Shown here piece by piece: positions 1 to 63,941 of a stretch of 64,000 nucleotides of DNA; the stretch's first letter is position 1, and each line of letters starts with the position of its first letter. The position numbers were made by a program, and so were the translations under genes. The DNA is from Mesoflavibacter sp. (lineage in GTDB: Bacteria > Pseudomonadota > Alphaproteobacteria > UBA8366 > Aestuariispiraceae), in the NCBI GenBank assembly GCA_017792345.1, contig CP051228.1, positions 806,001-870,000 on the forward strand. The letters run 5' to 3'. The notes beneath the pieces are model-generated. The model searched no databases. It had not been told where the DNA came from and saw nothing but the letters and a program-made list of their open reading frames with translations.

Positions 1-2477
1 TCAAACCGCGGGCTGTAGACGAAAATCTCGCGCAGCGGCGCGGGCTGCGGAATCTCCTGGATGTCCCGGCTGGAGAATTTGAACGAGACATAGGATTTGT
101 GCTGCCCGTCCGCGTCCGGCTGATAGAAGCTGGTCCGGAGCGTCACCTGGATCATGTTCAGGAACCGCCGGATGATGCGGTCCTCGTCCAGATTCGAGAC
201 ATCTTCCAGGGCCGCGAGAACCGCGTCGGCATGCTGCTGCGCCAGCGCCTCCCGGTCGTTTCCGATCGCCGGGTCGAACTTGGTCGTGAACAGGCTGGCC
301 AGGCTGCGCGCGATCCCGGCATTGTTGGCCAGGGTTTCCGCCATATAGTCCTGCGAGAACGGGATCGCCGCCTGGCGCAGGTATTTCGAATAGGCCCGGC
401 AGACCACGACATCGCGCCAGGCCAACCCTGCGGACAGGACCAGGCGGTTGAACCCGTCGTTTTCGACATCGCCCGCCAGGACGCGCAGGAAGCTGTCGTG
501 GAAGACGTCGCGCACGGCCTGGAAATCGATATCCCGGCCGTCCTCCGTCTCCAGCGCGAAGTCGTGGATATAGACGCCCGACGCCCCGTCATGGGCGTCC
601 GGGGCCATGCGCTGCTGCGCCGACAAGCGGCCCGGCACCTTGTCGCTGCCGGCGGGATGTACCTCGTACAGCAACTCCTCCATCACCTTCACGCCCATGT
701 TTTCCAGCATCGGCATGACGGTCGACAGGATCAGCGGCTTGAACGGTGAATAGATCTTGAACCGCACCTGATGGGCCGCGGCCTCAATCGGATGGTACAG
801 GTTGACCCTGGGCGTGCCGTCGCCCAGGGCGCCTTCTACCTGCTCGATATCATAACAGGCCGTCTGGACGTTGAAGTCGACCGTATAGGCGTGCGGGAAG
901 GCCTCGCGGTAGCGGTGGTAGAGCCCGATGCCGCGTTCTTCCCCCAGATTTTCGATCAGCGCCTGATGCAACCGGTCTTCCCAGGTGCGGGTGACCTCCG
1001 CCAGATTCTGTTCGATCTCCTTGCGGTCGACTTCCGGCACCGCGCCTGGGGTCGTTTTGACGATGAACTGGACCCGGGTCAGCGGTTCGTCCGTCATGAA
1101 GGTGTAGTGGGCGGCGATATGACCATCGAATTCCTTCGCCAATTGCGCGCCGATGGTCTTGCGCAGCGACGACGAGAACCGGTCGCGCGGCACATAGACC
1201 AGCGCCGAGACATAGCGCTGGAACGGATCCTGGCGCAGGAAGACCGCAATGCGCTGACGTTCCTGCAGGAACAGGATGCCGCGCGCGATCTCCGCCAGTC
1301 TTTCGGTCGAGATCTGGAACAACTCGTCGCGCGGATAGCTTTCCAGCACATGCATCAGCGCCTTGGACGAATGCCCGCCCGGTTCGAACCCGGCGGATTC
1401 CACCACGGCGTTCACCTTGTGGCGCAACAGGGGGATTTCGCGCGGCGACTGGTTATACGCGACGGAGGTCAGAAGCCCGATGAACAGGCGTTCGCCAACC
1501 GCATTGCCGTCCTTGTCGAATTTCTTGATCGCAATCGTATCCATGTGGACCCGGCGGTGCACGGTGGACCGGTTGTTGGCCTTGGTGATGCGCACCAGAT
1601 CCGGCGCCCGCATATGGGTTTGGATTTCCAGCGGCAGGGCGCCCAGATTGCGCAGGCCCTCGAAGACCTGGCGTTCCGCATCACGCAGAATGCCCAGACC
1701 GCTTTCGGGCGAGATCTCCAACCGCGCCTTCTTACCGGTGCCGCTATAGGCGATGTCGCGGTACCCCATGAAGGTGAAATGGTCGTCGTGAAGCCATTGC
1801 AGAAACTCCTTGGTTTCCGCGACGGCGCTCTTTTCAATCCCCTTGGGCGGCGTCTTGTCCAATTCCTTCTTGATCGCCAAAGCCTGGGCACGCATGGCGG
1901 CCCAGTCCTCGACCGAAGCGCGGACGTCGGCCAGAACCCGGCCGATCCCCTCTTCGATAGCGCGCAGCACTTCCGGGGCCGATTGTTCATCGACCTCGAT
2001 ATGCATGAAGCTTTCGCGCGGGAAGTCTTCTGTTTTCGCAGCGGCCGACGGGAAGTCCTTGGCCTTTCCCTTGCCGTCCCGGTCGACGCCGAAGACCGGA
2101 TGGACCACCAGATGGACGGTATACATCTGACGCGCCAGTTCCATGGTGACGCTGTCGACCAGGAACGGCATGTCGTCATTGACGATTTCGATCACGGTAT
2201 GGGTCGAATGCCAGCCGTGCTTTTCGAACCGCGGATTATAGGCACGGATTTTCGGATTGCCCGGCAGGCGTTCCTGCCCGAAGGCCCACATCGAAATCGC
2301 GGCGCCATACAGGTCTTCGGCCTCGCGGTCGCAAATGTCTTCCGGCGGGACATTGCGATAATAATGCGTGGTAAAGACATGGGCCGGTTCGCGCTGCTCC
2401 GCCTTGATGCGGCTGTCGATCAGCCCGTGAACCTTCTCAAGCAGTTCCGTCTTCTTCGCGTCGATTCGGTCGGTCAT
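1..2477 (-). CDS. gdhZ: NAD-specific glutamate dehydrogenase, large type (N-terminal part)
   Basis: This is the first 825 codons of a gene that runs off the left edge. It oxidatively deaminates glutamate to 2-oxoglutarate and ammonia with NAD, feeding glutamate carbon into the TCA cycle in the cytoplasm. The minus-strand frame is open over its whole length. It begins MTDRIDAKKTELLEKV and continues with stretches typical of the ~1600-residue bacterial GDH family, such as DDMPFLVDSVTMEL around residue 110 and an HLVVHPVFGVDR run just after. The catalytic Rossmann part would lie outside the window. The start ATG has a G-rich stretch just upstream. The name gdhZ follows Caulobacter usage. Confidence in the family is high. 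Confidence 0.93.
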   Translation of the reverse strand, partial: MTDRIDAKKTELLEKVHGLIDSRIKAEQREPAHVFTTHYYRNVPPEDICDREAEDLYGAAISMWAFGQERLPGNPKIRAYNPRFEKHGWHSTHTVIEIVNDDMPFLVDSVTMELARQMYTVHLVVHPVFGVDRDGKGKAKDFPSAAAKTEDFPRESFMHIEVDEQSAPEVLRAIEEGIGRVLADVRASVEDWAAMRAQALAIKKELDKTPPKGIEKSAVAETKEFLQWLHDDHFTFMGYRDIAYSGTGKKARLEISPESGLGILRDAERQVFEGLRNLGALPLEIQTHMRAPDLVRITKANNRSTVHRRVHMDTIAIKKFDKDGNAVGERLFIGLLTSVAYNQSPREIPLLRHKVNAVVESAGFEPGGHSSKALMHVLESYPRDELFQISTERLAEIARGILFLQERQRIAVFLRQDPFQRYVSALVYVPRDRFSSSLRKTIGAQLAKEFDGHIAAHYTFMTDEPLTRVQFIVKTTPGAVPEVDRKEIEQNLAEVTRTWEDRLHQALIENLGEERGIGLYHRYREAFPHAYTVDFNVQTACYDIEQVEGALGDGTPRVNLYHPIEAAAHQVRFKIYSPFKPLILSTVMPMLENMGVKVMEELLYEVHPAGSDKVPGRLSAQQRMAPDAHDGASGVYIHDFALETEDGRDIDFQAVRDVFHDSFLRVLAGDVENDGFNRLVLSAGLAWRDVVVCRAYSKYLRQAAIPFSQDYMAETLANNAGIARSLASLFTTKFDPAIGNDREALAQQHADAVLAALEDVSNLDEDRIIRRFLNMIQVTLRTSFYQPDADGQHKSYVSFKFSSRDIQEIPQPAPLREIFVYSPRF

Positions 2478-2707
2478 GCCGATTTCCCCCGCCGGATGTC
2501 GGAGCCGTTCCGAGCATTGCGCGCCGTCGTTGCGGCAGTCGGCTCCGGTTGTGTTTCCATCACCTTAATCCGAAATGCCGATGGCGCAAACGTCGGAAGA
2601 CAATCGGATTTTCCGGCAAATGTTACGACGGGACGTGTTACCATTTTTCATTCGGCTCCGTTGAGCGGAGCGACATGAAGACGGTGGGAGCACGGCAGGG
2701 GGCGGGC

Positions 2708-2974
2708 ATGACGACGCTTCAACAAGACGATAACCGGGTCTGGACCGGTGAGCACACGATGGACGCGCGGTATCGCCTGCCCTGGTTCGGCGGCCCGATC
2801 TATCTGCGCATCATGGTGGGGCGGGAGCGGCGGCCGGTCGCGCGGTCGGAAGAGGATGCGGCGCGCAGCGTCCGGCGATCGGCGGCAACATTCCTGTTCT
2901 TCACACTGGGTGCCTGTCTGTTTTACACCGTCGCGGCGGTTCTGCTGTTGCTCGGCAGCGCGGTCCTGGAGTGA
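2708..2974 (+). CDS. small membrane protein, unknown function
   Basis: I do not recognise this 88-residue protein. It has a charged N-terminal half containing a WFGGPIYLRIMVGRERR stretch. One hydrophobic segment at about residues 62-86 (FLFFTLGACLFYTVAAVLLL) should cross the inner membrane near the C terminus. I chose the ATG that follows an AGGGGG Shine-Dalgarno-like run; an in-frame ATG at 2675 would add 11 residues. It is transcribed divergently from the glutamate dehydrogenase gene, so the two may share a control region of about 230 bp. Codon use is like the neighbours, which supports a real gene, but no role can be assigned. Confidence 0.6.
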   Translation: MTTLQQDDNRVWTGEHTMDARYRLPWFGGPIYLRIMVGRERRPVARSEEDAARSVRRSAATFLFFTLGACLFYTVAAVLLLLGSAVLE

Positions 2975-3017
2975 CGGGCCGGGGGCTCCGGCGGACGGCT
3001 TGGACGGTGCGGGTCTG

Positions 3018-3512
3018 TTAGGGCAGTTCCTGGCGGACGGCGGTTTCCAAAGCTTCGGCCACCTTCAGGGAGACCTCGTCGCCTTCCTGGGCCCGCTTTT
3101 CCTTCAGCACGATATGCAAGGCCTTCAAATGCTGTTCGATCAGCATCGGCTTCAGCGGCTTCGCCGTGTCCCGCTCGATGATGTATTTGCAGAAGGACGT
3201 GCCGATCCGGGTAATCAGCGGATAGCCGAGCGTCGTGCCCTGACCGCGCAAATTGTGGACGCGGCGAAACAGCTTATCCAGCGCCGCCTGCTCCGGATTG
3301 GCGCGGTAGGCGGCCATCAACTTGTCCAGATCGGCCAATTCCTCCGCCAGGATGCCGTCGAACTCGCCGGCAACCTTGGCCACCACATCCTCGGCGCGGC
3401 GCAAGGCCTCGGAAGGGCGCGGCCCGCCCATGGCAGGCACCTTGTCGGCCAAGGGAGTCGGTTTGATGAACTCGACCTGGGCCGGGCCGTCCTTCCGTCT
3501 GTCCTGTGTCAT
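3018..3512 (-). CDS. Hpt-domain phosphotransfer protein
   Basis: A 164-residue protein whose C-terminal ~100 residues form a histidine phosphotransfer (Hpt) helical bundle. The segment FRRVHNLRGQGTTLGYPLI carries the expected phospho-accepting His followed by L-x-G-x-G/A. Such proteins shuttle phosphate between hybrid kinases and response regulators in the cytoplasm. The first ~45 residues are charged and probably flexible. The gene lies 13 bp behind a single-domain response regulator on the same strand, so the two are almost certainly co-transcribed and likely exchange phosphate. No histidine kinase is nearby. The open frame extends further upstream, but MTQDRRKDG is the natural start between the two genes. 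Confidence 0.78.
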   Translation of the reverse strand: MTQDRRKDGPAQVEFIKPTPLADKVPAMGGPRPSEALRRAEDVVAKVAGEFDGILAEELADLDKLMAAYRANPEQAALDKLFRRVHNLRGQGTTLGYPLITRIGTSFCKYIIERDTAKPLKPMLIEQHLKALHIVLKEKRAQEGDEVSLKVAEALETAVRQELP

Positions 3513-38470: not shown

Positions 38471-38695
38471 GGCACGCCCCCCGATCCTTAAATGTCGGGC
38501 AAGGATGGCGCGGTCCGGAACCGGCAACAAGCGCGCCTCAGGCACACCACTTGTGCCGTCATGCACCCGTGGGAATGCCCAAAGAAGCATCGCTTTATGT
38601 CTGCACAAAAACCCTCTTTCCCTGGTCTTCAAACCGAGTCAGAGTGCGCGCCGACGTGATGGGTTCGCTGCGGCGATGGCTTAGAGGGTTTCTGC

Positions 38696-41125
38696 ATGAA
38701 AAATCAGGCGCGTGTGGTGGTGATCGGCGGCGGGGTCGTCGGGTGTTCGGTTCTGTATCACCTGACCAAGATGGGCTGGACCGACATCATGCTGATCGAG
38801 CGGTCGGAGCTGACCTCCGGGTCGACCTGGCACGCGGCCGGCGGGTTCCACACGCTGAACGCCGACACGAACATGGCGGCGCTGCAGGGCTATACGATCA
38901 AGCTGTATCGCGAGTTGGAGAAGATCACCGGCCAGTCCTGCGGGTTGCACCATGTCGGCGGCGTGACCATCGCGACGACGCCGGACCGCCTGGACTATCT
39001 GAAGGCGGAGCGCGCGAAGCACCGTTACATGGGCCTGGAGACGGAAATCGTCGGGCCGGAAGAGATCAAGAAGCTGTCGCCCATCACCAATGTCGACGGC
39101 GTTCTGGGCGCGCTCTACGACCCGCTGGACGGGCATCTGGACCCGTCGGGCACGACCCATGCCTATGCCAAGGCCGCACGCATGGCCGGGGCCGAGATCG
39201 TCCTGCGCAACCGGGTGATCGAGACCAATCCGCGCGCGGACGGGACCTGGGACGTGGTGACCGAGATGGGCACCGTCCATGCCGAACATGTCGTCAATGC
39301 CGGCGGATTGTGGGCGCGCGAGGTCGGCGAGATGGCCGGCATCATGCTGCCGCTGCACCCGATGGAGCACCAGTATCTGGTGACCGGCGACATCCCGGAA
39401 GTCTATGAGCGCGACGAGGAACTGCCCCATGTCATGGACCCGGCGGGCGAGACCTATCTGCGCCAGGAAGGCCGCGGCCTCGTCATCGGCATCTATGAGC
39501 AGGATTGCGACCCCTGGGCCGTCGACGGCACGCCGTGGGATTTCGGGCATGAGCTGCTGAACGACAATCTGGAACGCATCGCCGAGCCGCTGGACGCCGC
39601 CTTCAAGCGCTATCCGGTGCTGGAGCGCGCCGGGATCAAGACAATCATCAACGGCCCCTTCACCTTCGCGCCGGACGGCAACCCGCTGGTCGGGCCGATC
39701 CCCGGCCTGCGCAATTACTGGTCCGCCTGCGCCGTCATGGCCGGGTTCAGCCAGGGCGGCGGCGTCGGCCTGACGCTGGCCGAATGGATGGTCGAGGGCG
39801 AGCCGGGCCGCGACGTCTATGCCATGGATGTCGCCCGTTTCGGCGATTACTGCACCCGCCCCTATACCCGCATGAAGGTGAAGGAGAACTATCAGCGCCG
39901 CTTCTCCATCTCCTACCCCAATGAGGAACTGCCGGTCGGGCGGCCGCTGCAGACGACCCCGGCCTATGGGCTGTGGAAGGCCCAGCGCGCGGTCTTCGGC
40001 TCCGGCTACGGGCTGGAGCATGTGAACTATTTCGCGCCGGAAGGCGAACCGCTGTTCGAAACGCCGACCTTCCGCCGCTCCAACGCCTTCGACGCCATCG
40101 CCGCCGAATGCCGCGCGGTGCGCGAGGCCGTGGGCATCAACGAGATCCACAATTTCGGCAAGTATCTCGTCTCCGGCCCCGGCGCCGTCGACTGGCTGAA
40201 CCGCATCATGGCGAACCGCGTGCCGAAATTCGGCAAGATCGCCTTGACCCCGATGCTGTCGCCCAAGGGTAAGATCATCGGCGATTTCACCATGTCCCGC
40301 CTGGCCGAGGAGGAGGTGCAGCTCACCGCCTCCTATTCCGCGCAGGCCTTCCACATGCGCTGGTTCCTGCACCACCTGCCGCAGGATGGCAGCGTCACGC
40401 TCCAGAACGTCTCGCTGCAGCGTATCGGCTTCCAGATCGCCGGGCCGAATGCCCGCGAATTGCTGTCCCGCGTCACCGGCAGCGACGTCTCGAACGCGGC
40501 GATGCCCTTCCTCAGCTGCACGCCGGTCGAAATCGGCCCGATCCCGGCCCTGGTCAACCGCGTCACCTATACCGGCGATCTGGGCTACGAAATCTATGTC
40601 GACGCCGTGCACCAATGCGCGCTCTACGAGGCACTGTCGGCGGCCGGCGACGATCTGGGCCTCAAGCCATTCGGCATGCGCGCGATGATGAGCCTGCGCC
40701 TGGAAAAGAGCTTCGGCTCCTGGATGCGCGAATTCCGCCCGGAATTCACCTGCACCGAAACCGGTCTGGACCGCTTCATCAGCTTCAAGAAGAACGATTT
40801 CATCGGCCACGCCGTCGCCGTCCGGGAACGCGACACTCCCCCCGCCCGCCACCTGGCAACCTTCATCGTCGACGCCGGCGACGGCCCGGATGCGGCCGAC
40901 TGCGTCGCCGACGAGCCAATCTACAAGGACGGCAAGGTCGTCGGCTTCGTCACCTCAGGCGGCTACGCCCATTACAGCCAAAAGAGCGTCGCCATCGGCA
41001 TGATCCCAAAGGAAATGATCGAAGACGGCGCGAAGTTCGAAATCGAAATCCTGGGCGAGGTGAAGCAGGCCACGCTGATCGAGGAGGTCCTGTTCGACCC
41101 GAAGGCGGAGAGGATGCGGGGGTGA
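38696..41125 (+). CDS. FAD-dependent dimethylglycine/sarcosine dehydrogenase-like protein
   Basis: An 809-residue two-part enzyme. The N-terminal ~430 residues form an FAD-binding amine oxidoreductase domain beginning with RVVVIGGGVVGCSVLYHLTKMG, with the covalent-flavin His region in STWHAAGGFHTLNAD. The C-terminal ~380 residues resemble the GcvT/aminomethyltransferase folate-binding domains (GLGYEIYVD-like DLGYEIYVDAVHQ and LGLKPFGMRAMMSLRLEKSF). Such enzymes demethylate dimethylglycine or sarcosine, pass the methyl to tetrahydrofolate, and send electrons to ETF and ETF-QO. The exact substrate is not certain. The 3' end is copied as a decayed remnant at 42225. Confidence 0.9.
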   Translation: MKNQARVVVIGGGVVGCSVLYHLTKMGWTDIMLIERSELTSGSTWHAAGGFHTLNADTNMAALQGYTIKLYRELEKITGQSCGLHHVGGVTIATTPDRLDYLKAERAKHRYMGLETEIVGPEEIKKLSPITNVDGVLGALYDPLDGHLDPSGTTHAYAKAARMAGAEIVLRNRVIETNPRADGTWDVVTEMGTVHAEHVVNAGGLWAREVGEMAGIMLPLHPMEHQYLVTGDIPEVYERDEELPHVMDPAGETYLRQEGRGLVIGIYEQDCDPWAVDGTPWDFGHELLNDNLERIAEPLDAAFKRYPVLERAGIKTIINGPFTFAPDGNPLVGPIPGLRNYWSACAVMAGFSQGGGVGLTLAEWMVEGEPGRDVYAMDVARFGDYCTRPYTRMKVKENYQRRFSISYPNEELPVGRPLQTTPAYGLWKAQRAVFGSGYGLEHVNYFAPEGEPLFETPTFRRSNAFDAIAAECRAVREAVGINEIHNFGKYLVSGPGAVDWLNRIMANRVPKFGKIALTPMLSPKGKIIGDFTMSRLAEEEVQLTASYSAQAFHMRWFLHHLPQDGSVTLQNVSLQRIGFQIAGPNARELLSRVTGSDVSNAAMPFLSCTPVEIGPIPALVNRVTYTGDLGYEIYVDAVHQCALYEALSAAGDDLGLKPFGMRAMMSLRLEKSFGSWMREFRPEFTCTETGLDRFISFKKNDFIGHAVAVRERDTPPARHLATFIVDAGDGPDAADCVADEPIYKDGKVVGFVTSGGYAHYSQKSVAIGMIPKEMIEDGAKFEIEILGEVKQATLIEEVLFDPKAERMRG

Positions 41126-41392
41126 GTGTTTCAGGATGCTTGCCCGCGAATATCGCAAGGGAGCCCAAAACGTCACTCAAAAACGGCGCGAATTCTACTT
41201 TGGAGCGCCGCTGTGAGATTCCTTGGGTTGCCCCCCCGAGCTTGGGAAGGCCACAACTCTCTAGAATCTTCCGAAGTGCCAACAACGGGTACCGAAGTTT
41301 TTTAATCCTACACAATCTCTAAAATGTGGTGCTATGAATGGTTGCTTGACCGAAGAGAGTACGATCAGACGGACCATCTAGTGTGATGACCA

Positions 41393-42100
41393 ATGCCAAA
41401 GATTGCGTTGACCGACCTACGCTCGACTATCCTGCAGGCTGTAGACTCTGCCGCAGCAGACTTTGAGAAGTGGACCAGAAATTTCTGGGTCACCGACTAT
41501 GGAGCCGAAGGCCTGATACAGACTCGAATCGCAGAACGGCTCTACTCGCTTCAAGAAAATGGTGCGAATCAAAAGTTTGCCGTGGGCATCGAGATCTCGA
41601 TTTCCGAAGCCGCCAATCGCACGTTACAGCGCGCCGATAACCAGAAACTTGAAACTGCGGCGATCAGTGGCCGCAGCCGACCGGATATCTGCATTTGGGA
41701 TCAATCCGGACGCGTACCCTACATCGTAGAAGTCAAACGAAAATGGGATACCGAAACCGCGGCACAGGATATTCGCCGATGCGGCGATTTCGTCCGAATC
41801 TTCGGAGGCAATCACAGGATTGGCGCGAAGGCCGCCTTCTTCGCGGTCGTTCTTCACCGCGGGCTGCGCGCCGGTGCGGAGTACTTCGAGCCGGACGACA
41901 AAGAGGTTCAGGCCAGTCTCGTTGACAAGGCAAGGAACGCGTTAGCACGGCAGGGGCACCAACCGCTGAAGGTATCAGCCTTTGTATCTGAGGCTCGTAA
42001 TTTCAATTTCCGCCCAACATGGCCGGCAGACCCGGCATCGGCAATGAATCATCATCAATGGCTCTGGCGTGGAGCGGTCATTGAAGTGCGGCGGAATTGA
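41393..42100 (+). CDS. PD-(D/E)XK nuclease-like protein
   Basis: A 235-residue protein of unknown family that carries a PD-(D/E)XK nuclease core. GRSRPDICIWD supplies Asp98, and VPYIVEVKRKWD supplies Glu113-Val-Lys115 on the next strand. An upstream helix with GLIQTRIAERL could provide the early Glu. The rest (DIRRCGDFVRIFGG, KAAFFAVVLHRGLR) is consistent with a Mrr- or Hjc-like fold. Such proteins are often restriction or repair nucleases. It sits in the accessory segment between the dehydrogenase gene and its decayed copy, and convergent with the DUF262 gene. The ATG has only a weak ribosome site. Confidence 0.72.
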   Translation: MPKIALTDLRSTILQAVDSAAADFEKWTRNFWVTDYGAEGLIQTRIAERLYSLQENGANQKFAVGIEISISEAANRTLQRADNQKLETAAISGRSRPDICIWDQSGRVPYIVEVKRKWDTETAAQDIRRCGDFVRIFGGNHRIGAKAAFFAVVLHRGLRAGAEYFEPDDKEVQASLVDKARNALARQGHQPLKVSAFVSEARNFNFRPTWPADPASAMNHHQWLWRGAVIEVRRN

Positions 42101-42224
42101 GGCAGTTCGTTGAACGAGACAATTGCATGCTCGTGATTGACCTCGCTACCAACCTAGATCTTAGGAAACGAGGGGAGTACCGCCGAAGCCGAACTAACGT
42201 CCTATTTCTCGAACTGAATGAGAG

Positions 42225-42299
42225 TGTGTCGCCGACGGGCTGGTCTACAAGAACGGCGATGTTCTGTTCGACCCGAAGGCGAAGCCGACGCGAGGGTTG
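42225..42299 (+). pseudogene. decayed 3' fragment of a second dimethylglycine-dehydrogenase-like gene
   Basis: Translated in one frame this gives CVADGLVYKNGDV followed directly by LFDPKAKPTRG. It mirrors CVADEPIYKDGKV and LFDPKAERMRG in the last 75 codons of the gene ending at 41125. The stretch between them, 150 bases in the intact gene, is missing in frame. By eye, 30 of 39 and 28 of 33 bases match. After it come a shifted frame with a stop and no start. The fragment is a paralogue remnant, not a gene. Confidence 0.75.
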
Positions 42300-42357
42300 G
42301 GCTTGACGCCAGCTACAAGCAGTTCGACGATATGCACGAAGCCTTTGCCCACAATTT

Positions 42358-43965
42358 TTAGGTTTTATCTAAGTGAAGCGTGTCACACAGCTTCGCAGCC
42401 AACTCTGAGAGTTTGAACGCCCTATTCTCGACAAACTTTTCATAATCGTCAGACCATAGAATGTCGTCGGTTAGTGCAGAATTAAGAATCTGGACTATGG
42501 CATTGTTATCTTTTGGCATATTTTGTCGATATTCAGATGGTGCCTTTCCACCTAGCTTCCGATTATCGGCTCGAGACAAAAAGCAAAAATTCGCCAGAAT
42601 ACTATCGCCATATTTTTCTTTCTGACCGGTCTTCTCAAGAAAACTTCTCGGCATCATATGATGAAATTCAGACCTATTGGCCGCCTTAAGCGTCTCAGAC
42701 AGATTTACTTTCTGCCCAGACACAAATGAACGAGGGTCATTCGATGCAAGCATAAGTATGAGAGTTTTCGTATTAACGTTGCTTATTCTAAAAACATTAT
42801 TTATGAACATATCCTTAGATATATTTGTTTGAAATTCTCCAATTTTCGAATCTTTTTCATCTCGCAACAACGCCATCTGTTCAATATCAGTTTTCAGGTT
42901 TCGGAGAACACCAGAGCTATATCGTCGTGAAAATGATGAACGCCAAAACCACTTATTAATCGCCGTTCTCTGAAAGTCATTTACCGCCCTCTCCTTATCA
43001 CCACTAACCGCGAAAAAGACAGAAAGCGGGACCAACTGCGTTACGAACGGTAAGTTATCTAGTCTCTGTGCCACAAACTGGTTCCTCAGATAGTCGACCG
43101 CATAGCTAATACCATTTCGAATCTGATCGAAATTTTCTCTCACTTCCGCGCCGTTAAGCTTCATCAAGGCAGACGGCGATGCATCGCCTGTGAGGATTGC
43201 CGAACAGCAACGAAGCATTAAATCTGTATCACTTCCGATACCATGAAATCCAAACGGAGCCAAATGCTCAGACAGTTCTTCAAACTGATCTGCTAGTTGG
43301 AAATCTTCACTCCAAGTCCAAGCAGATAGCAATTGAAGCGTATCAAGTTCCACTCCTTGCCGATTCACTCTTTCAAAAATAATTGCTACCGTTTCCTTGT
43401 CATCAGTTTTTGTTATTTGAACTGGAATCTTTATTTCCTTAAATCTAGATTGAAGTTCATCAATTCTATTTATGGACTCCTGCCCAAGCGACTCGGTCGC
43501 GGCTCGATACGAGGTGGTTTCAAAGAGAGTACGCAGTGGGAAATGCCGACCTTTAACAACCTCGTCCGGTCGCAACGCCAAAAATTGATTATCTTGCGCA
43601 GTTTCGTCCGCACCTAAATCAAAATATATATCCATCCAATCTGCTTTCTCCTCATCGGAAACAAGTAGTTCATTTTGGAATACCCCAAATATAGATGTCA
43701 CTCTTTGCTGTCCATCTAGGACATAATCAACCGGGTAATCTTCTTTAGGCTGCGGCAATCTAAAAGGTCCAAGCTCACGATCAAATTTTAATTGTTCTTT
43801 AGTTCGCCAAAACATCAAGGAACCGAAGGGGTAACCTTTATAGATACTATCCATAAGGTATGCGACTCTTTCAGAGTCCCAAACAAATCCTCTCTGGAAG
43901 GCAGGAATTCGAATCTGGCCATTACTGACAGCTTCAATTATCCCACGAATGCTAAAATCTTCCAT
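42358..43965 (-). CDS. DUF262 / HNH (GmrSD-like) type IV restriction-family protein
   Basis: A 535-residue protein with an N-terminal DUF262 domain: IRIPAFQRGFVWD with the conserved QR at residues 24-25, and YVLDGQQRVTSIF with DGQQR at 84-88. A C-terminal HNH-type (DUF1524-like) nuclease region has FHHMMPRSFLEK at ~434-445 and Asn459 and Asn468 further on (ANFCFL, ADNRKLGGKAPSEY). GmrSD-, SspE- and BrxU-type defence enzymes share this layout and cut modified or foreign DNA using nucleotide hydrolysis. The coding sequence is clearly more AT-rich than the neighbours, a sign of recent transfer. The start MEDFSIRGII is preceded by AGG. Confidence 0.85.
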   Translation of the reverse strand: MEDFSIRGIIEAVSNGQIRIPAFQRGFVWDSERVAYLMDSIYKGYPFGSLMFWRTKEQLKFDRELGPFRLPQPKEDYPVDYVLDGQQRVTSIFGVFQNELLVSDEEKADWMDIYFDLGADETAQDNQFLALRPDEVVKGRHFPLRTLFETTSYRAATESLGQESINRIDELQSRFKEIKIPVQITKTDDKETVAIIFERVNRQGVELDTLQLLSAWTWSEDFQLADQFEELSEHLAPFGFHGIGSDTDLMLRCCSAILTGDASPSALMKLNGAEVRENFDQIRNGISYAVDYLRNQFVAQRLDNLPFVTQLVPLSVFFAVSGDKERAVNDFQRTAINKWFWRSSFSRRYSSGVLRNLKTDIEQMALLRDEKDSKIGEFQTNISKDMFINNVFRISNVNTKTLILMLASNDPRSFVSGQKVNLSETLKAANRSEFHHMMPRSFLEKTGQKEKYGDSILANFCFLSRADNRKLGGKAPSEYRQNMPKDNNAIVQILNSALTDDILWSDDYEKFVENRAFKLSELAAKLCDTLHLDKT

Positions 43966-44163
43966 AATCCTAATCTCGCCTTCGCATCATGATTTAGAAT
44001 CTTAGTCGCAGAATTCCAAAATTTACAATACTTAGTAGAATTTTGTTATAAAAATCTCAGTGTACGAACAAGCCTAGCGCAAATGTATCTGCGTGGACCA
44101 GAGCGCCCTTTCCCTTGCCAAACCGCCCCGCATCCGCAGTTCTCTCCCCGTCTGCTCCGTCCG

Positions 44164-44470
44164 TCCTGGAAAGGGAAAGAGACGACACCTTCAGTTAAGA
44201 CCATGGTTCCGGAGGGGGCGCCACCTCTGATCGGTAGCCATGTGCCGAAGGCGGGGGAGTCTGATCATGAACTGCGGGGTCGGCGGGATTGACGGGCGCA
44301 CTTCCCCTGAACCGTCATTCCCGCGAAGGCGGGAATCCAGAGCGCTGTGGCACGATCCTGCCTTGTTCCCTGGGCCCCGGCTTTCGCCGGGGCGACGATG
44401 CCGGGAAGGGGGCAACGTCCCTCCGCGACCTTGGCGTCTTCTTTGCGTCCTCTGCGGTTCTCTTCCCCTA
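44164..44470 (+). repeat. ~300-bp direct repeat, left copy
   Basis: It begins TCCTGGAAAGGGAAA and ends TCTCTTCCCCT. It matches the right copy at 45140-45545 over most of its length, the right copy being longer by about 95 bp. Inside are the small palindromes of the type seen at 20517, including GTCATTCCCGCGAAGGCGGGAATCCAG and CCGGCTTTCGCCGGGGCGACGATGCC. The two copies flank the toxin-antitoxin pair. No coding region is supported inside this copy. Confidence 0.8.
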
Positions 44471-44519
44471 AACCGGCCGCCGCCGCAGCACCTCGGACCC
44501 GGGTATTGGGGATTTCGCG

Positions 44520-44531
44520 ATATGCGCATAT
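44520..44531 (+). promoter_or_regulatory. palindrome upstream of ccdA, likely operator
   Basis: ATATGCGCATAT is a perfect 12-base palindrome 27 bases before the chosen ccdA start. It lies in the likely promoter. CcdA/CcdB complexes repress their own promoter, so this is a reasonable operator, though unproven. Confidence 0.5.
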
Positions 44532-44558
44532 AGTATGCGTAACGTTATGGAGATTCCG

Positions 44559-44789
44559 ATGTCCGCCCATGCCAGAAAGCCTACCAACCTCTCCCTTGAC
44601 GCCACCCTGATCGGAGAGGCGAAGGCGCTGTCCGTCAACCTCTCCCGGGCGGCGGAGGAAGGTGTGCGGGCGGCCGTTGCGAAGGCGAAGGCGGCGCGGT
44701 GGAAGGCGGAGAACGCCGAGGCTCTGGATGGCTATAACCGGTGGGTCGAGGCGAACGGACTGCCGCTCGACAAGTACCGGCAGTTCTGA
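44559..44789 (+). CDS. ccdA: CcdA-family antitoxin
   Basis: A 76-residue antitoxin of a type II toxin-antitoxin pair. The N-terminal half (RKPTNLSLDATLIGEAKALS) is a ribbon-helix-helix DNA-binding fold. The C-terminal half (AENAEALDGYNRWVEANGLP, then LDKYRQF) is the CcdB-binding tail, closely following the F-plasmid CcdA pattern ending in W-x3-N-x5-Y. It binds and neutralises the toxin encoded eight bases downstream. I chose ATG 44559 because GGAG lies six bases ahead; two earlier in-frame ATGs lack a ribosome site. An operator-like palindrome lies just upstream. Confidence 0.9.
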   Translation: MSAHARKPTNLSLDATLIGEAKALSVNLSRAAEEGVRAAVAKAKAARWKAENAEALDGYNRWVEANGLPLDKYRQF

Positions 44790-44797
44790 GGCGGACG

Positions 44798-45097
44798 GTG
44801 GCACAATACGATCTTTACGCCATGCCCGATGGCGCCGGGTATCTGCTGGACGTTCAGGTGGAACTGCTGGAAGAGTTGCGCACACGGGTCGTTGTGCCAC
44901 TGCTGCCCCGCGCGGAGGCCCCGCCGCCGGCACGGCGGTTGAACCCCGTTTTTCCGTTGAACGGCGCGGATCATGTGATGGTAACCCAGAACCTCGCCGC
45001 AGTGCCGGTATCGATCCTTGGCAAGCCGGTCGGGTCGCTGGCGTCGCAGGCCGACGAACTGCGTAATGCATTGGATATGGTGTTCATCGGCTTCTAG
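44798..45097 (+). CDS. ccdB: CcdB-family toxin (gyrase poison)
   Basis: A 99-residue toxin that traps DNA gyrase cleavage complexes when free of the antitoxin. The sequence follows CcdB throughout: AQYDLYAMPDGAGYLLDVQV at the start, RTRVVVPLLPRAEAPPPARR in the middle, FPLNGADHVMVTQNLAAVPV, and a final DELRNALDMVFIGF with the C-terminal gyrase-binding residues. The start is probably GTG eight bases after the ccdA stop; the frame is open further upstream inside ccdA. Length is that of the family. The pair sits between two long direct repeats. Confidence 0.88.
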   Translation: MAQYDLYAMPDGAGYLLDVQVELLEELRTRVVVPLLPRAEAPPPARRLNPVFPLNGADHVMVTQNLAAVPVSILGKPVGSLASQADELRNALDMVFIGF

Positions 45098-45139
45098 CCC
45101 CATGCCACATCGTCCTGCATCCGCTTTCCGCGCCGTCGA

Positions 45140-45545
45140 TCCTGGAAAGGGAAATCGATGGCACCTTCAATTGAAACCATGGTTCCGAAGGGGTCGCCGC
45201 CTCTGACCGGTAGCCATGTGGCAAAGGCGGGCAGTCTTAACCTGACCGCCGTTACGCGGGATTGAAGGGCGCACCTCCCCTGAATCGTCATTCCCGCGAA
45301 GGCGGGAATCCAGGGCGCTGTGGCACGATCCTGCCTATTTCCCTGGATCCCCGCCTTCGCGGGGATGACGGGATGGGAATGGGGATGACGGAAGTGAGGG
45401 GCGGGGAGTGTGGTGGAGGATGGCGCGGTCCTGCCTTATTCCCTGGGCCCCGGCTTTCGCCGGGGCGACGATGCCGTGAATGGGGGCACCGATTCCTCCG
45501 CGTTCTTCGCGCCTTCTTCGCGTCCTCTGCGATTCTCTTCCCCTA
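45140..45545 (+). repeat. ~300-bp direct repeat, right copy (longer by an insertion)
   Basis: It starts TCCTGGAAAGGGAAAT and ends TCTCTTCCCCTA, and matches the copy at 44164. An extra ~95 bp near 45348-45440 includes a further palindrome pair (CCCCGCCTTCGCGGGGATGAC). Its last three bases carry the stop codon of the convergent aroQ-like gene. No gene is supported inside. Confidence 0.78.
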
Positions 45546-46022
45546 TACCGGCAGCGTCCGCAGCGGCGCGGGCAATCCGTCCGGCACGGCGTCCAGCATG
45601 CGGGCCGCCGACAGCATGGCCATCAGGTAGCCATAAGGACCCAGTCCGCAGATCACCGATGTGGCAGCGGTGGAGATGATGGAATGGCGGTGGTGGATGT
45701 CGCGGGCGTGGATGTTGGAGATATGGACCTCCACGATCGGGCCGTCGAAGGTCTTCAGCGCGTCCAGCAACGGGACGGAATGGAAGGACAGGCCCGCCGG
45801 GTTGAGGATGATGGCGCGGCCGGTCTTGCGGACCTCGTGGATCCATTCGATCAACTGCCCCTCATAGTTCGACTGACGGAAGGTCATGGACAGGCCCAGC
45901 GTCTTCGCGAAACCGGTGCAGGCCTCCTCGATCTGCGGCAGGGTCGTGGCGCCGTAGATTTCCGGCTCCCGCTCCCCCAGCAGGTTCAGATTCGGGCCGT
46001 TCAGGATGGTCAGGTCGGTCAT
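45543..46022 (-). CDS. aroQ: type II 3-dehydroquinate dehydratase family protein (AroQ-like)
   Basis: A 159-residue protein of the dodecameric AroQ family, which reversibly dehydrates 3-dehydroquinate in the shikimate or quinate route. TDLTILNGPNLNLLGEREPEIYG keeps the active-site Asn, Arg and Tyr, and IVEVHISNIHARD keeps the catalytic His. However, the substrate-contact segment usually reading T-H-T-S after the N-x-G-G loop reads S-F-H-S here (NPAGLSFHSV), and QSNHEG reads QSNYEG, so the substrate may differ. The start MTDLTIL matches the family; the frame upstream is not conserved. A repeat copy overlaps its last bases. Confidence 0.84.
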   Translation of the reverse strand: MTDLTILNGPNLNLLGEREPEIYGATTLPQIEEACTGFAKTLGLSMTFRQSNYEGQLIEWIHEVRKTGRAIILNPAGLSFHSVPLLDALKTFDGPIVEVHISNIHARDIHHRHSIISTAATSVICGLGPYGYLMAMLSAARMLDAVPDGLPAPLRTLPV

Positions 46023-58375: not shown

Positions 58376-58486
58376 GGTGATCCGACCCGTTCCGAAAAGT
58401 GAAATACCCCGAAATCTCGGATCGAAGTTTCAGCGCCGCATACGGGCAGTGTCAACCGCCCGTTGACGATCCCTCGTCCTTGCGGA

Positions 58487-59587
58487 TTAAACGTTGAAGC
58501 GGAAATGGAAGACGTCGCCGTCCTTCACCAGGTAATCGCGGCCTTCCAGCCGCACCTTGCCGGCCTCTTTGGCCGCCGCTTCGCCCCCCAGCCCGGCGTA
58601 ATCATCATAGGCGATGGTTTCCGCCGCGATGAAGCCGCGTTCGAAATCCGTATGGATGACCCCTGCGGCCTGCGGCCCCTTGGCCCCGCGGAACACGGTC
58701 CAGGCACGGGCCTCTTTCGGGCCAACCGTGAAGAAGGTGATCTGATCCAACAGCGAGTATCCGGCGCGAATCACGCGGGTCAGGCCGGTTTCCTCCAGCC
58801 CCAGCGTATCGAGGAATTCGCGGCGCTCCTCCTCGGTATCCAATTGTGCCACCTCGGCCTCGATCGCAGCGGAAATCACGACCGCCTGCGCACCCTCGGC
58901 CTTGGCTTTCTCGAAGACCTTCGCGGAAAATTCGTTGCCGGTGCCGGCCGCCTCTTCCTCGACATTGCAGACATACAGAACAGGCTTGGACGTGATCAGT
59001 TGCAGCCGGCGGAAAGGCACTTCCTCTTCCGGCGTCAGATCGGCCAGGCGGGCGGGTTTGCCGTCGCGCAGCAGGTCCAGCGCCTTGGTCATCAGGGCGA
59101 TATCCGCCTTGGCTTCCTTGTCGCCGGAATTGGCCCGTTTCTGGATCGGCTGGATGCGCCGCTCCAGACTTTCCATATCCGACAGCATCAATTCGGTCTC
59201 GACCGTCTCCGCATCGCGCAACGGATCGACGGAGCCCTCGACATGGGTGATGTCGCCATTTTCGAAGCAGCGCAGGACGTGGCAGATCGCGTCGACTTCG
59301 CGGATATTCCCCAGGAACTGGTTGCCCAGCCCTTCGCCCTTCGACGCGCCCTTCACCAGGCCGGCAATGTCGACGAATTCCAACTGGGTCGGGATGATCT
59401 TTGCGGATTTGGCCAAGGCGGCCAACTTGTCCAGGCGAGGATCCGGCACGGCGACGCGGCCCACATTCGGCTCAATGGTGCAGAACGGGAAGTTCGCGGC
59501 CTGGGCGGCCTGCGTTTCGGTCAGGGCGTTGAACAGGGTCGATTTGCCGACATTGGGCAGGCCGACGATACCGCAATTGAAGCCCAT
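58487..59587 (-). CDS. ychF: redox-regulated ATPase YchF
   Basis: A 366-residue Obg-related P-loop protein that hydrolyses ATP instead of GTP. It has G1 GIVGLPNVGKSTLFNALT, a G3 region FVDIAGLVKGASKGEG, and VLYVCNVEEE in the place of the NKxD of GTPases. A C-terminal TGS domain ends with KDGDVFHFRFNV. It binds ribosomes and takes part in stress responses. It is followed on the same strand by pth and rplY, a common alphaproteobacterial order. Length matches the family. Confidence 0.95.
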   Translation of the reverse strand: MGFNCGIVGLPNVGKSTLFNALTETQAAQAANFPFCTIEPNVGRVAVPDPRLDKLAALAKSAKIIPTQLEFVDIAGLVKGASKGEGLGNQFLGNIREVDAICHVLRCFENGDITHVEGSVDPLRDAETVETELMLSDMESLERRIQPIQKRANSGDKEAKADIALMTKALDLLRDGKPARLADLTPEEEVPFRRLQLITSKPVLYVCNVEEEAAGTGNEFSAKVFEKAKAEGAQAVVISAAIEAEVAQLDTEEERREFLDTLGLEETGLTRVIRAGYSLLDQITFFTVGPKEARAWTVFRGAKGPQAAGVIHTDFERGFIAAETIAYDDYAGLGGEAAAKEAGKVRLEGRDYLVKDGDVFHFRFNV

Positions 59588-59607
59588 GGGGCCCTCCTAG
59601 CTAATAG

Positions 59608-60306
59608 TCACTGAGCGTCCGGATCGCCGGACATCCATTTCTTCAGTTGCGCCGCCAATCCGCTATCCGGCTTCGCGTCCGGCGCGTCGGCGGGGGCCGG
59701 CGCCGCCTTGGCGGGCTTTGGATCGGATGCCGGTTTCGGCGGGTTCAAATCCATCGCCAGTTTCGACATGAAATCCGACGCCTTGCCTTGCGCCAGCAGA
59801 TCGAAACGGTCGGAAATGCCGTCCAGCAGTCGTTCGAATTCCGGCCATTCCGCCTTGCTGAAATCGGACAGGACATGCCCCACGACGCGTGCCTTGTCGC
59901 CGGGATGGCCGATGCCGATACGCACCCGCCAATAGTCCTTGCCGATATGGGCATCGATCGATTTCAGACCGTTATGACCGCCATTGCCGCCGCCCTGCTT
60001 CACCTTGATGCGCGTCGGGGCGAGGTCCAGCTCGTCATAGAGGACGGTGACGTCGCCTGCATTCAGCTTGAAGAAGCGCATGGCTTCGCCGACGGACCGG
60101 CCGCTTTCGTTCATGAAGGTGGCGGGCTTGAGGATCAGAACCTTCTCGCCGCCGACCTCACCTTCCGAGGTCAGGCCCTGAAAGCGGCTGCGCCAGGCGG
60201 AAAAGGAATGGCGGCGGACGATTTCGTCCACCGCCAGGAATCCGACATTGTGGCGGTTGCGCTCGTATTTCGGTCCGGGATTGCCGAGCCCAACAACGAG
60301 ACGCAT
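59608..60306 (-). CDS. pth: peptidyl-tRNA hydrolase
   Basis: A 232-residue enzyme that releases peptides from dropped-off peptidyl-tRNA. [27 protein letters not shown] holds the catalytic-His region and conserved Asn. [20 protein letters not shown] supplies the second conserved Asn, and [24 protein letters not shown] the tRNA-binding loop. The last ~45 residues are Pro/Ala/Lys-rich and probably disordered, longer than in E. coli. It is followed by ychF 20 bases away. It is preceded by rplY with a 30-bp gap. Confidence 0.95.
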
Positions 60307-60336
60307 GGGATACCGCCTTTCGTCCGGTCGGGAGGG

Positions 60337-60990
60337 TTACTCCTCGGACTCCGCTTCCTCTTCGTCGTCCGCCGCTTCTTCGACGTCCTCGTCCTCATCA
60401 TCGCTCTCGACCGGCTCGGAGATCGAGGGCGACGAGATGTTGGCGACGACGAAGTCGCGATCCTGAATGACCGGCTCGACGCCTTCCGGCAGCGTGACCA
60501 TGGAAATCCGGATCGTATCGCCGATCTGGGTCCCGGTCAGGTCGCAAACGACTTCGTGCGGAATGTCGTCGACCGGGCACATCAGTTCGACTTCATCGCG
60601 CGTGACGTTCAGAATGCCGCCCTGGTCGATGCCCGGGCTGGCTTCTTCATTGATGAAGGTGACCGGAATGTTGACGTTGATCTTCGACCCTTTGCGCAGG
60701 CGCATGAAGTCGATGTGAAGCGGTGCGTCGGTGACCGGATGGAACTGCACGTCGCGCGGCAGCGCCTTTTCCTTGGCCCCGCCTTCAACGTCGACCGTAT
60801 AGATCGTGTTGAACAGCAGACCCATTTCCAACTGCTTCATAATGTGACGCGGATCGACCGCAATCGTCAGGGGATCCTTGTTGTCGCCATAGACGACACC
60901 CGGCACAAGGCCTTCGCGGCGGACCGCACGGGCTGCCCCCTTACCTGCCCGCTCCCGCGCTTTGGCGGGGAAGATCGCTTCTTCAGCCAT
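60337..60990 (-). CDS. rplY: 50S ribosomal protein L25/general stress protein Ctc
   Basis: A 217-residue long-form L25, the CTC type that binds 5S rRNA. The N-terminal domain (ARERAGKGAARAVRREGLVPGVVYGDNK) is the RNA-binding barrel, and the C-terminal domain extends over NVNIPVTFINEEASPGIDQGG. The last ~30 residues are strongly acidic. The start MAEEAIFPAK is chosen by family; the frame upstream runs into the prs 3' spacer. A perfect 8-bp hairpin (CCGGATCG/CGATCCGG, 61020-61040) lies in its leader. Confidence 0.94.
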   Translation of the reverse strand: MAEEAIFPAKARERAGKGAARAVRREGLVPGVVYGDNKDPLTIAVDPRHIMKQLEMGLLFNTIYTVDVEGGAKEKALPRDVQFHPVTDAPLHIDFMRLRKGSKINVNIPVTFINEEASPGIDQGGILNVTRDEVELMCPVDDIPHEVVCDLTGTQIGDTIRISMVTLPEGVEPVIQDRDFVVANISSPSISEPVESDDEDEDVEEAADDEEEAESEE

Positions 60991-61144
60991 CTCGTTTCTC
61001 CTCAATATGCGAGTATCCACCGGATCGACCTCCGATCCGGCGACCGACCTCCAGGGGTGTCGGCTGGGGCTCCTCAGAGCCAATGCTTCGCGCGACCGGT
61101 ACGGTCTGGACCGCCCGGCGCCCGAAAAGCGGCCTCTTCTACAC

Positions 61145-62080
61145 TCAATCGAAGAGGCTGGAAACCGATTTTTCTTCGTAAATCCGGCGGATCGCCTCGG
61201 CCAGCAGCGGGGCGATCGTAACCTGCCGCACATTGTGGCTGACCCGCACCGCCTCGGTCGCCTGAATCGAATCGGTGATGACCAGCTGCTCCAGCGGCGA
61301 CGCCGCGACGCGGGCGACCGCACCACCGGACAGAACGCCATGGGTAACCACCGCATGGACCGACTTCGCCCCGGCATCGACCAGTGCCTGCGCCGCGTTG
61401 CACAGCGTCCCGGCGGAATCGACGATATCGTCGATCAGGATACAGGTCCGGCCTTTCGGCTCGCCGATAATGTTCATGACTTCGGACACGCCGGCCTTTT
61501 CGCGGCGCTTGTCGATAATGGCCAGATCGCATTCCAGGCGTTTGGCCAGCGCACGGGCGCGCACCACGCCGCCGACATCGGGCGAGACGACCATCAGCTC
61601 GTCCTCATCCTTCAGCGTTTCCTTCAAGTCCTTATGCAGGACCGGCAGGGCGAAGAGATTGTCGGTCGGGACTTCGAAAAAGCCCTGGATCTGACCGGCA
61701 TGCAGGTCCAGCGTCAAAACGCGGTTGGCGCCGGCCGTTTCGATCAGATTGGCGACCAGCTTGGCCGAGATCGGCGTCCGCGGCCCGGTTTTCCGATCCT
61801 GACGGGCGTATCCGTAATAGGGAATGACCGCCGTGACGCGCCGGGCGGAACCGCGCCGAAGCGCGTCCATCATGACCAGCAGTTCCATCAGATTGTCATT
61901 GGTCGGATAGTTCGTCGACTGAACCACGAACACGTCTTCGCCGCGTACGTTCTCCAGGATCTCGACGAAAATCTCCATGTCGGAGAAGCGCCGGATCGAG
62001 GCTTTGGTCAGCGGAACGTTGAGATAAGCGGAAATCGCTTCGGCAAGCGGCTTGTTCGAGTTGCCGGCAAGAATTTTCAT
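61145..62080 (-). CDS. prs: ribose-phosphate pyrophosphokinase
   Basis: A 311-residue enzyme making phosphoribosyl pyrophosphate from ribose 5-phosphate and ATP. It has [16 protein letters not shown] at the N terminus, [21 protein letters not shown], the PRPP signature [19 protein letters not shown], and the loop [20 protein letters not shown]. These place it in the class I Prs family. The usual start MKILAGN is preceded by no strong ribosome site. It is upstream of rplY by about 150 bp; the two may still be read together. Length matches the family. Confidence 0.95.
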
Positions 62081-62302
62081 GAGATGGCGTATCCCTGATG
62101 CGCCGGGACCCACCGCGTTTCGCTGAACACGGTCACCCCCGCTTTCGACTTCGTCCGCCGCTCCGCACCCCGCAGCCTTCCTCCGCTCCACCCCTGTGGG
62201 AAAGACCGTGCCGGGACGCGCGAACGACCGCGCGGGTGGGGTATACCAAGGGGCATGCGGACTGTAAACGGCCTGCCGCGTTTCGCCGCGCCAAGGGACC
62301 CA

Positions 62303-62957: not shown

Positions 62958-63917
62958 TCATCCCTTGGCGCGCGGATGAGCCCGGGCATATTCCGCCATC
63001 AGGCGGGCGGTATCGACCTCGGTATAGCGCTGCGTCGTACTCAGAGACGCATGGCCAAGAAGTTCCTGAATGGCCCGCAGATCGCCGCCGCCCGCCAGCA
63101 GATGGGTCGCAAAACTATGGCGCAGGGCATGCGGCGTCGCCGTGTCCGGCAGGCCCAGGGCGGCGCGCAACATGCGGATCGGCTTGCGCGCGCTGTCCTG
63201 GTTCATGCGCCCGCCGCGCACACCGCGAAACAACGGCCCATCCGGATCGCCCGCGAAGGGGCTTTCCGTCAGATAGGCTGCGATCGCATCCCGAACCACC
63301 GGCAGTACGGGTACGAAGCGTTCCTTGTTGCCTTTCCCCAGAACCCGCATCGCGTCGCCGTCAGGGGCCTGCCCCTCGTTCAGCGACAACGCCTCGGCGA
63401 TGCGCAGCCCGCAGCCATAGAGCAGGGTCATGAGGGCGACGTTGCGCTTCGCGACCCATGCTTCGGTCTCGAAATCCCCGGCGGATTCGATCAACAACTC
63501 CGCATCGGGGACGCTCAGCGGTTTCGGCACCGAATGGGGAATCTTTGGCGCGCGCACTAGGTTCAACCGGTCGTTCTCAACGAGGCCCCGTTTGCGCAGA
63601 TAGCGAAAGAAGGTCCGGATCGACGACAGTTTCCGGGCCCGCGATATGTCCTGGACCCCGCCTTCCGACAGCCGCGCCAACCAGGATCGGAAATCCAATT
63701 GCCGTAAATCCGCCAGGTCGGACAGTTCCGGCGGCGCCCCCAGATGGCGGGTCAAGAAGGTCAGGAAATCCTCGACGTCCCGGCTATAGGCGGACACCGT
63801 ATGGGGGCTGAGGCGGCGTTCGTCGTTCAACCAGGTCAGGAAGGCGAGATAGGCCTTGGCCACCGGCCCGTCGCCGATGACCGGGTGCTGCGACAGGTCG
63901 AAGCGGTCATCGGCCAT
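62958..63917 (-). CDS. xerC: tyrosine recombinase XerC
   Basis: A 319-residue site-specific recombinase that with XerD resolves chromosome dimers at dif. The N-terminal SAM-like domain includes YLAFLTWLNDERRLSPHTVSAYSRD. The catalytic residues are visible in order: Arg in LYGCGLRIAEALSL, Lys in GKGNKERFVPV, His-x-x-Arg in HALRHSFATHLL, His in LLGHASLSTTQRY, and the nucleophile Tyr in the same segment. The start MADDRFDL is preceded by GGGGGC; an ATG eight codons upstream overlaps that site. A DUF484-like gene end lies 24 bp upstream. Confidence 0.94.
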   Translation of the reverse strand: MADDRFDLSQHPVIGDGPVAKAYLAFLTWLNDERRLSPHTVSAYSRDVEDFLTFLTRHLGAPPELSDLADLRQLDFRSWLARLSEGGVQDISRARKLSSIRTFFRYLRKRGLVENDRLNLVRAPKIPHSVPKPLSVPDAELLIESAGDFETEAWVAKRNVALMTLLYGCGLRIAEALSLNEGQAPDGDAMRVLGKGNKERFVPVLPVVRDAIAAYLTESPFAGDPDGPLFRGVRGGRMNQDSARKPIRMLRAALGLPDTATPHALRHSFATHLLAGGGDLRAIQELLGHASLSTTQRYTEVDTARLMAEYARAHPRAKG

Positions 63918-63941
63918 GCCGCGCCCCCTCGGCAGCGGCAC

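What the first reader, a model, noticed from the sequence alone, without database searches (positions are those of the whole stretch)
41126..45546. Small accessory island with two putative DNA-attacking enzymes and a toxin-antitoxin pair
Between the dehydrogenase gene and the aroQ-like gene lie a PD-(D/E)XK-like gene, an AT-rich DUF262/HNH gene of GmrSD/SspE type, and CcdA/CcdB. Base composition changes clearly, most strongly at 42358-44080. The nuclease-like gene has no obvious annotated family. Established: DUF262/DUF1524-type proteins restrict modified phage DNA. Inference: the nuclease-like gene and the DUF262 gene could form one unusual defence unit, though they are convergent.
Basis: partly seen in the sequence, partly recalled or inferred. 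Interest (0 to 1): 0.62.

Follow-up and report, generated by a model that had tools for sequence, protein, structure and literature searches.

The report
Two unrelated lone nuclease genes inserted
A short stretch of foreign DNA beside a metabolic gene carries two nuclease genes that probably act separately against invading DNA; the toxin-antitoxin pair next to it is shared with relatives and not part of it, so the locus is fairly ordinary.

Summary
The anatomy is largely as described, but the proposed two-enzyme defence unit is not supported. The nearest same-genus genome (G003, 95.7% nt) lacks 41124-44310: its dehydrogenase-like gene runs almost straight into the repeat at 44311. CcdAB is present in G003 and in G001, so it is not part of the insert. 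The insert holds two intact genes. (1) 41393-42100(+): a 235-aa PD-(D/E)XK nuclease-like protein with invariant E/D/ExK residues and a restriction-endonuclease-like predicted fold, unmatched in the family libraries tried. (2) 42358-43965(-): a 535-aa DUF262-HNH protein whose model resembles BrxU, with 68.5%-identical relatives on Agrobacterium plasmids. No locus fetched from another genome holds both. Of four other nuclease-bearing genomes, one has any DUF262 protein, on other contigs; 16 DUF262-bearing relatives retested with the nuclease profile gave none. A probable decayed copy of the upstream gene's 3' end lies between them and their GC differs (55.6% and 41.6%), suggesting separate arrivals. 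Best reading: two lone accessory nucleases sharing an insertion site, one a BrxU/GmrSD-like Type IV restriction candidate, one an unnamed restriction-like nuclease.

The parts
38696..41125 (+). Chromosomal FAD oxidoreductase/GcvT (dimethylglycine dehydrogenase-like; name recalled) gene; its 3' end is the left edge of the insert
   Evidence: DAO + GCV_T domains; orthologues in same-genus genomes; 95.7% nt to G003 up to 41123
41124..44310 (.). Segment absent from closest relative G003 (right edge uncertain, 44111-44310)
41393..42100 (+). 235-aa PD-(D/E)XK nuclease-like protein (E39, D98, E113-x-K115)
   Evidence: five-sequence alignment invariants; AF2 pTM 0.80; restriction-endonuclease-like structures head the VIA-align list
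42225..42297 (+). Probable decayed copy of the 3' end of the 38696-41125 gene, with an internal deletion
   Evidence: repeat families D5 and D7; the only matches besides itself in 14 genomes are the 3' ends of that gene in G000, G003 and G004; moderate statistics
42358..43965 (-). 535-aa DUF262-HNH (BrxU/GmrSD-like) protein, AT-rich
   Evidence: PF03235 9.7e-31; PADLOC PDC-M55C 2.7e-62; BrxU by Foldseek 7.8e-14 and VIA Z 16.5
44535..44789 (+). ccdA antitoxin; neighbour, not part of the insert
   Evidence: PF07362; present in G003 and G001
44798..45097 (+). ccdB toxin; neighbour, not part of the insert
   Evidence: PF01845; present in G003 and G001

Best explanation
A 3.2-kb accessory insertion at the 3' end of a dehydrogenase-like gene carries two lone nuclease genes, probably acquired separately. 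The DUF262-HNH protein most likely works as a BrxU/GmrSD-like Type IV restriction enzyme: the N-terminal ParB/sulfiredoxin-like domain binds and hydrolyses a nucleotide through DGQQR, and the C-terminal HNH domain cuts invading (probably modified) DNA. The PD-(D/E)XK protein is most likely a stand-alone, metal-dependent restriction-like endonuclease. As neither gene of the insert is a methyltransferase, it more likely recognises a modification or needs activation than cuts an unmodified site constitutively. Shown: absence in the closest relative, intact motifs, predicted folds, lack of co-occurrence in the genomes searched. Inferred: enzymatic activity, specificity, defence role, separate arrival.
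For: Absence in G003; invariant catalytic residues in 5 sequences, the other four 16-46% identical to the window protein; fold; DUF262 domain and near-full-length defence-candidate models; BrxU fold and BrxU as the only PDB sequence hit; the nuclease gene, of low GC, without the DUF262 gene at other places in G004 and G226; the DUF262 gene without the nuclease in G011 and G076 and at six plasmid loci; no co-occurrence in relatives; probable gene remnant between the two; different GC.
Against: No activity shown. Few nuclease homologues (four outside this genome), so the co-occurrence test is small, and one of the four (G579) does carry DUF262 proteins, on other contigs. One search had no positive control of its own. 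The remnant is short (40 nt at 83%, E 3e-4) and with permissive gapped scoring only just beats 2000 shuffles (74.38 against 74.30). The Agrobacterium DUF262 gene has near-local GC (54.5% against 56.2%), so the low GC here does not identify the donor. Foldseek alone gave no confident match for the nuclease model; its first row is a sphingomyelinase at E 3.4e-3, and methyltransferases are mixed with nucleases.
Confidence: 0.72

Rival explanations
1. The nuclease and the DUF262 protein form one two-component defence unit.
For: Adjacent and convergent, both within a segment absent from G003.
Against: No fetched locus from another genome holds both (many of these loci reach only about 1.5 kb beyond the match); 1 of 4 other nuclease-bearing genomes has any DUF262 protein, on other contigs; 0 of 16 DUF262-bearing relatives retested has the nuclease; probable remnant between them and different GC.
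Confidence: 0.05
2. The PD-(D/E)XK protein is a free-standing selfish (homing-type) nuclease rather than a defence enzyme.
For: Lone gene, scattered, at different intergenic sites in G000, G004 and G226.
Against: Different flanks in each genome; canonical ExK active site; no cognate site tested.
Confidence: 0.12
3. The whole stretch including ccdAB arrived as one addiction-stabilised island.
For: Adjacent in the window.
Against: ccdAB follows the same gene in G003 and G001 without the two nuclease genes; its GC is normal.
Confidence: 0.03

Closest known systems
BrxU (GmrSD-family Type IV restriction enzyme, PDB 7p9k/7p9m)
   Same: DUF262 with DGQQR, HNH-type C-terminal domain, structural match over nearly the full length
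   Different: about 18-19% identity; no BREX model among the PADLOC matches of 44 other window ORFs at E<=1e-5; no Pfam GmrSD_C match
PADLOC candidate models PDC-M55C and HEC-05
   Same: near-full-length profile matches, 2.7e-62 and 2.2e-30; PDC stands for 'phage defence candidate' (PMC11514479, passages)
   Different: no other PDC-M55 component matched among the 4 proteins of the finding and 44 neighbour ORFs scanned (that the system has other components is recalled); the name PDC-M55 occurs in no paper of the library
PD-(D/E)XK restriction endonuclease superfamily (3ijm, Bse634I, Cfr10I, SgrAI, NucC)
   Same: core fold and ExK active site
   Different: no sequence-level family; best Z 8.8, only just above the aligner's stated background of 7 to 8

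Membership tests
PD-(D/E)XK nuclease superfamily (for 41393-42100) | Conserved acidic residues and (D/E)xK at the core strands | tested here: met
   E39, E67, R96, D98, E113, K115, D126, R129 invariant in 5 of 5 aligned sequences
PD-(D/E)XK nuclease superfamily (for 41393-42100) | Restriction-endonuclease-like fold | tested here: met
   AF2 pTM 0.80; VIA top rows are restriction-endonuclease-like: Z 8.8 over 119 residues at 3.2 A for 3ijm, Z 7.8 over 162 at 3.5 A for Bse634I; unrelated rows such as Rep15 stand at Z 5.7. Foldseek alone weak
PD-(D/E)XK nuclease superfamily (for 41393-42100) | Metal-dependent nuclease activity | not testable with these tools
   needs a biochemical assay
GmrSD family | DUF262 (PF03235) with DGQQR | tested here: met
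   9.7e-31; DGQQR at 84-88 invariant in the alignment of 6
GmrSD family | DUF1524 (PF07510) C-terminal domain | tested here: not met
   no PF07510 match at E<=0.1, although the model's C-terminus aligns with Cas9 HNH domains at Z about 5
GmrSD family | (E/D)H-N-N catalytic motif of GmrD (PMC4619093, passages) | tested here: inconclusive
   H435, H436, P439, N459, N468 invariant in 6; H in place of E/D
GmrSD family | NTP-dependent cleavage of modified DNA | not testable with these tools
   needs an assay
SspE/DndI (phosphorothioate-sensing) | Partner phosphorothioate modification genes | tested here: inconclusive
   no DndC (TIGR03183) in the genome, but none of 14 control genomes exceeded the model's cut-off; ssp genes were not searched genome-wide
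SspE/DndI (phosphorothioate-sensing) | Full-length SspE profile match | tested here: not met
   two SspE models match over 26-28 residues only, best E 6.5e-5; the predicted fold does resemble SspE and DndI, below BrxU
CcdAB toxin-antitoxin | Adjacent CcdA and CcdB | tested here: met
   PF07362 1.9e-27 and PF01845 1.3e-28

The most novel reading that the evidence does not exclude
The 41393-42100 protein belongs to an undescribed, sparsely scattered family of solitary PD-(D/E)XK restriction-like enzymes (relatives in the same class plus more distant members elsewhere in the same phylum) that act without a methyltransferase, by recognising a DNA modification or an infection signal.
Probability: 0.25. 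Interest if true: 0.4.

Novelty: new member of a known kind. Interest (0 to 1): 0.2.

Why it matters
It corrects a plausible 'two-gene system plus TA' reading and shows one insertion site that probably gathered two independent lone nucleases. It also puts an unnamed PD-(D/E)XK family, with intact active-site residues, on the list for testing.

Tried and rejected
Searches for relatives of the nuclease in genome contigs with the single protein, in plasmids and phages and in viral contigs found nothing; the second genome-contig scan found only the G004 record. PDB sequence searches with the nuclease gave nothing meaningful. A permissive Pfam scan (E<=10) of three family members gave one weak match in one of the three, HSDR_N_2 at 0.12, and none for the window protein. 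NCBIfam gave the DUF262 protein only a weak DGQHR match, 0.012, below cut-off.

Of 11 of 398 phylum genomes matching at E<=0.01, I kept three: own, G579 (1.8e-10) and G522 (1.6e-6). I dropped the other eight: their matches cover only part of the profile, mostly positions 83-159 of 241, at E 5e-5 to 8e-3. In four of the loci that I read (L078, L079, L080, L085) the ORF there looks like another PD-(D/E)XK family (DUF3782-like; name recalled). The loci of G519, G549 and G735 I did not read.

Other defence genes near by: of 44 window ORFs scanned with PADLOC at 1e-5 (44 of the 55 picked by my simple caller; some real genes, for example around 46-49 kb, were not in the set), the matches were single-protein hits to SspH, mad8, PycC and HerA models. 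I take these as generic relatives (sulfate permease, cyclase and FtsK by Pfam; the pairing of model to gene is my inference). Integrase-driven insertion was considered: the one Phage_integrase match among these 44 ORFs is at 62961-63941, about 19 kb away.

Full report
Observation. The window lies in a genome held as one 4.91-Mb contig. GC falls from a window mean of 62.7% to 55.6% in the nuclease gene and 41.6% in the DUF262 gene, and is 63-64% again in ccdAB.

Borders. In G003, the closest relative in the set (95.7% nt over 38616-41123), the match breaks inside the stop codon of that gene and resumes 7 bases later at window position 44311, then runs through ccdAB (93.6% over 44311-45100) to aroQ. 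So 41124-44310 is what G003 lacks, and ccdAB is shared. G001 also has ccdAB after this gene (69.0% nt over 44584-45095). No ccdAB match was seen in the 5.6 to 9.2 kb read after this gene in G002, G004 and G005. The stretch 44151-44412 resembles 45127-45384 (82%), so the right edge is uncertain by about 200 bases.

Nuclease gene. No match in Pfam, PADLOC or NCBIfam at E<=0.1, nor in PHROGs at E<=1. Homologues by sequence or profile: G004 (47%; 2 of 190 genomes including own), G226 (2 of 385 including own), G579 and G522 (see Tried and rejected for eight weaker genomes that I dropped). In the order, 2 of 43 genomes match, own and G004. The five sequences share E39, E67, R96, D98, E113, K115, D126 and R129. 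The AF2 model has mean pLDDT 74.3 and pTM 0.80. VIA-align ranks restriction-endonuclease-like structures first (3ijm Z 8.8, 119 residues, 3.2 A; Bse634I Z 7.8, 162 residues, 3.5 A). Foldseek alone gave no match at E<=0.001, and Z near 8 is close to the aligner's background. Motif and fold together carry the assignment.

DUF262 gene. GmrSD_N by Pfam (9.7e-31); no GmrSD_C match. PADLOC candidate model PDC-M55C matches residues 7-529 at 2.7e-62 and HEC-05 residues 3-520 at 2.2e-30; weaker matches go to NsnA, HEC-06, PD-T4-2_A, SspE (28 residues) and Orf5. By sequence, BrxU is the only PDB hit at E<=0.1 (1.5e-10). By structure BrxU leads (Foldseek 7.8e-14; VIA Z 16.5 over 458 residues, rmsd 15.8 A, so domains match but their arrangement in the model does not); DndI, SspE, ParB and Cas9 HNH domains follow. 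The model itself is moderate (mean pLDDT 69.3, pTM 0.57). Relatives at 68.5-68.6% identity lie on three Agrobacterium plasmid records; in the two that I opened they sit between a peroxiredoxin and an MgtC gene. 56 of 72,556 plasmid records and 2 of 50,697 phage records match at 1e-10. What GmrSD, BrxU and SspE do is taken from passages of PMC4619093 and PMC10952713.

One unit or two? In the same 190 relatives the DUF262 protein matched 21 genomes including own and the nuclease 2 including own, with only the own genome in common. With the five-sequence profile, 0 of 20 genomes matched: 16 of the 20 other DUF262-bearing genomes, plus four same-genus genomes (no positive control in that call, but the same profile finds G000 and G004). 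PF03235 was sought in 8 genomes and found in 5. Of the four other genomes with the nuclease, G004, G226 and G522 have none and G579 has two, on contigs other than the nuclease's. G003, which lacks this insert, has one DUF262 protein elsewhere. Of 108 sequences held (the window and 107 loci, six plasmid loci among them), only those from this same stretch of the own genome hold both. In G004 the nuclease gene lies between a gene that I read as gcvP and one that I read as a TauD-type dioxygenase; in G226 it follows a gene that I read as a WYL-type regulator (names recalled, not tested). Its GC there is 43.7% and 42.2%, against locus values of 56.3% and 68.0%.

Between the two genes, 42225-42297 resembles two pieces of the 3' end of the oxidoreductase gene in the right order (79% over 38 and 47 nt). 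Besides itself, its only matches at E<=0.001 in 14 genomes are the 3' ends of that gene in G000, G003 and G004 (E 2.9e-4 to 9.5e-4). A permissive gapped test only just exceeds 2000 shuffles. I call it a probable remnant. If right, the two genes are separated by a scar of the insertion site, which fits successive insertions.

Mechanism. Type IV-like restriction by the DUF262-HNH protein is the most economical reading; the nuclease is a lone restriction-like endonuclease of unknown trigger. Neither is demonstrated. As a finding it is a small accessory insertion of known kinds, plus one unnamed nuclease family.

Noticed in passing
44151-44490 and 45127-45564: Direct repeats (82-88%) containing REP-like palindromes flank ccdAB; G003 has a shorter arrangement.
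   Followed up: partly
62961-63941 (-): Tyrosine recombinase (Phage_integrase 1.3e-30); the three ORFs before it at 58463-62095 have no Pfam match at 1e-5 and lower GC3, 0.65-0.66.
   Followed up: no
42298-42357: Stretch after the probable gene remnant that reads as a possible C-terminal fragment of another protein running up to 42360 (frame 0); origin unknown.
   Followed up: no
L069:1288-1977 and 1984-3207: In G226 the nuclease gene starts 6 bases after a WYL-type regulator-like gene (name recalled) on the same strand, GC 42% against 71%.
   Followed up: no
L102:6001-7573: The DUF262 gene of Agrobacterium strain 15955 is annotated shorter (1392 bases) than in FDAARGOS_1048 (1581), and its match is in two pieces.
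   Followed up: no
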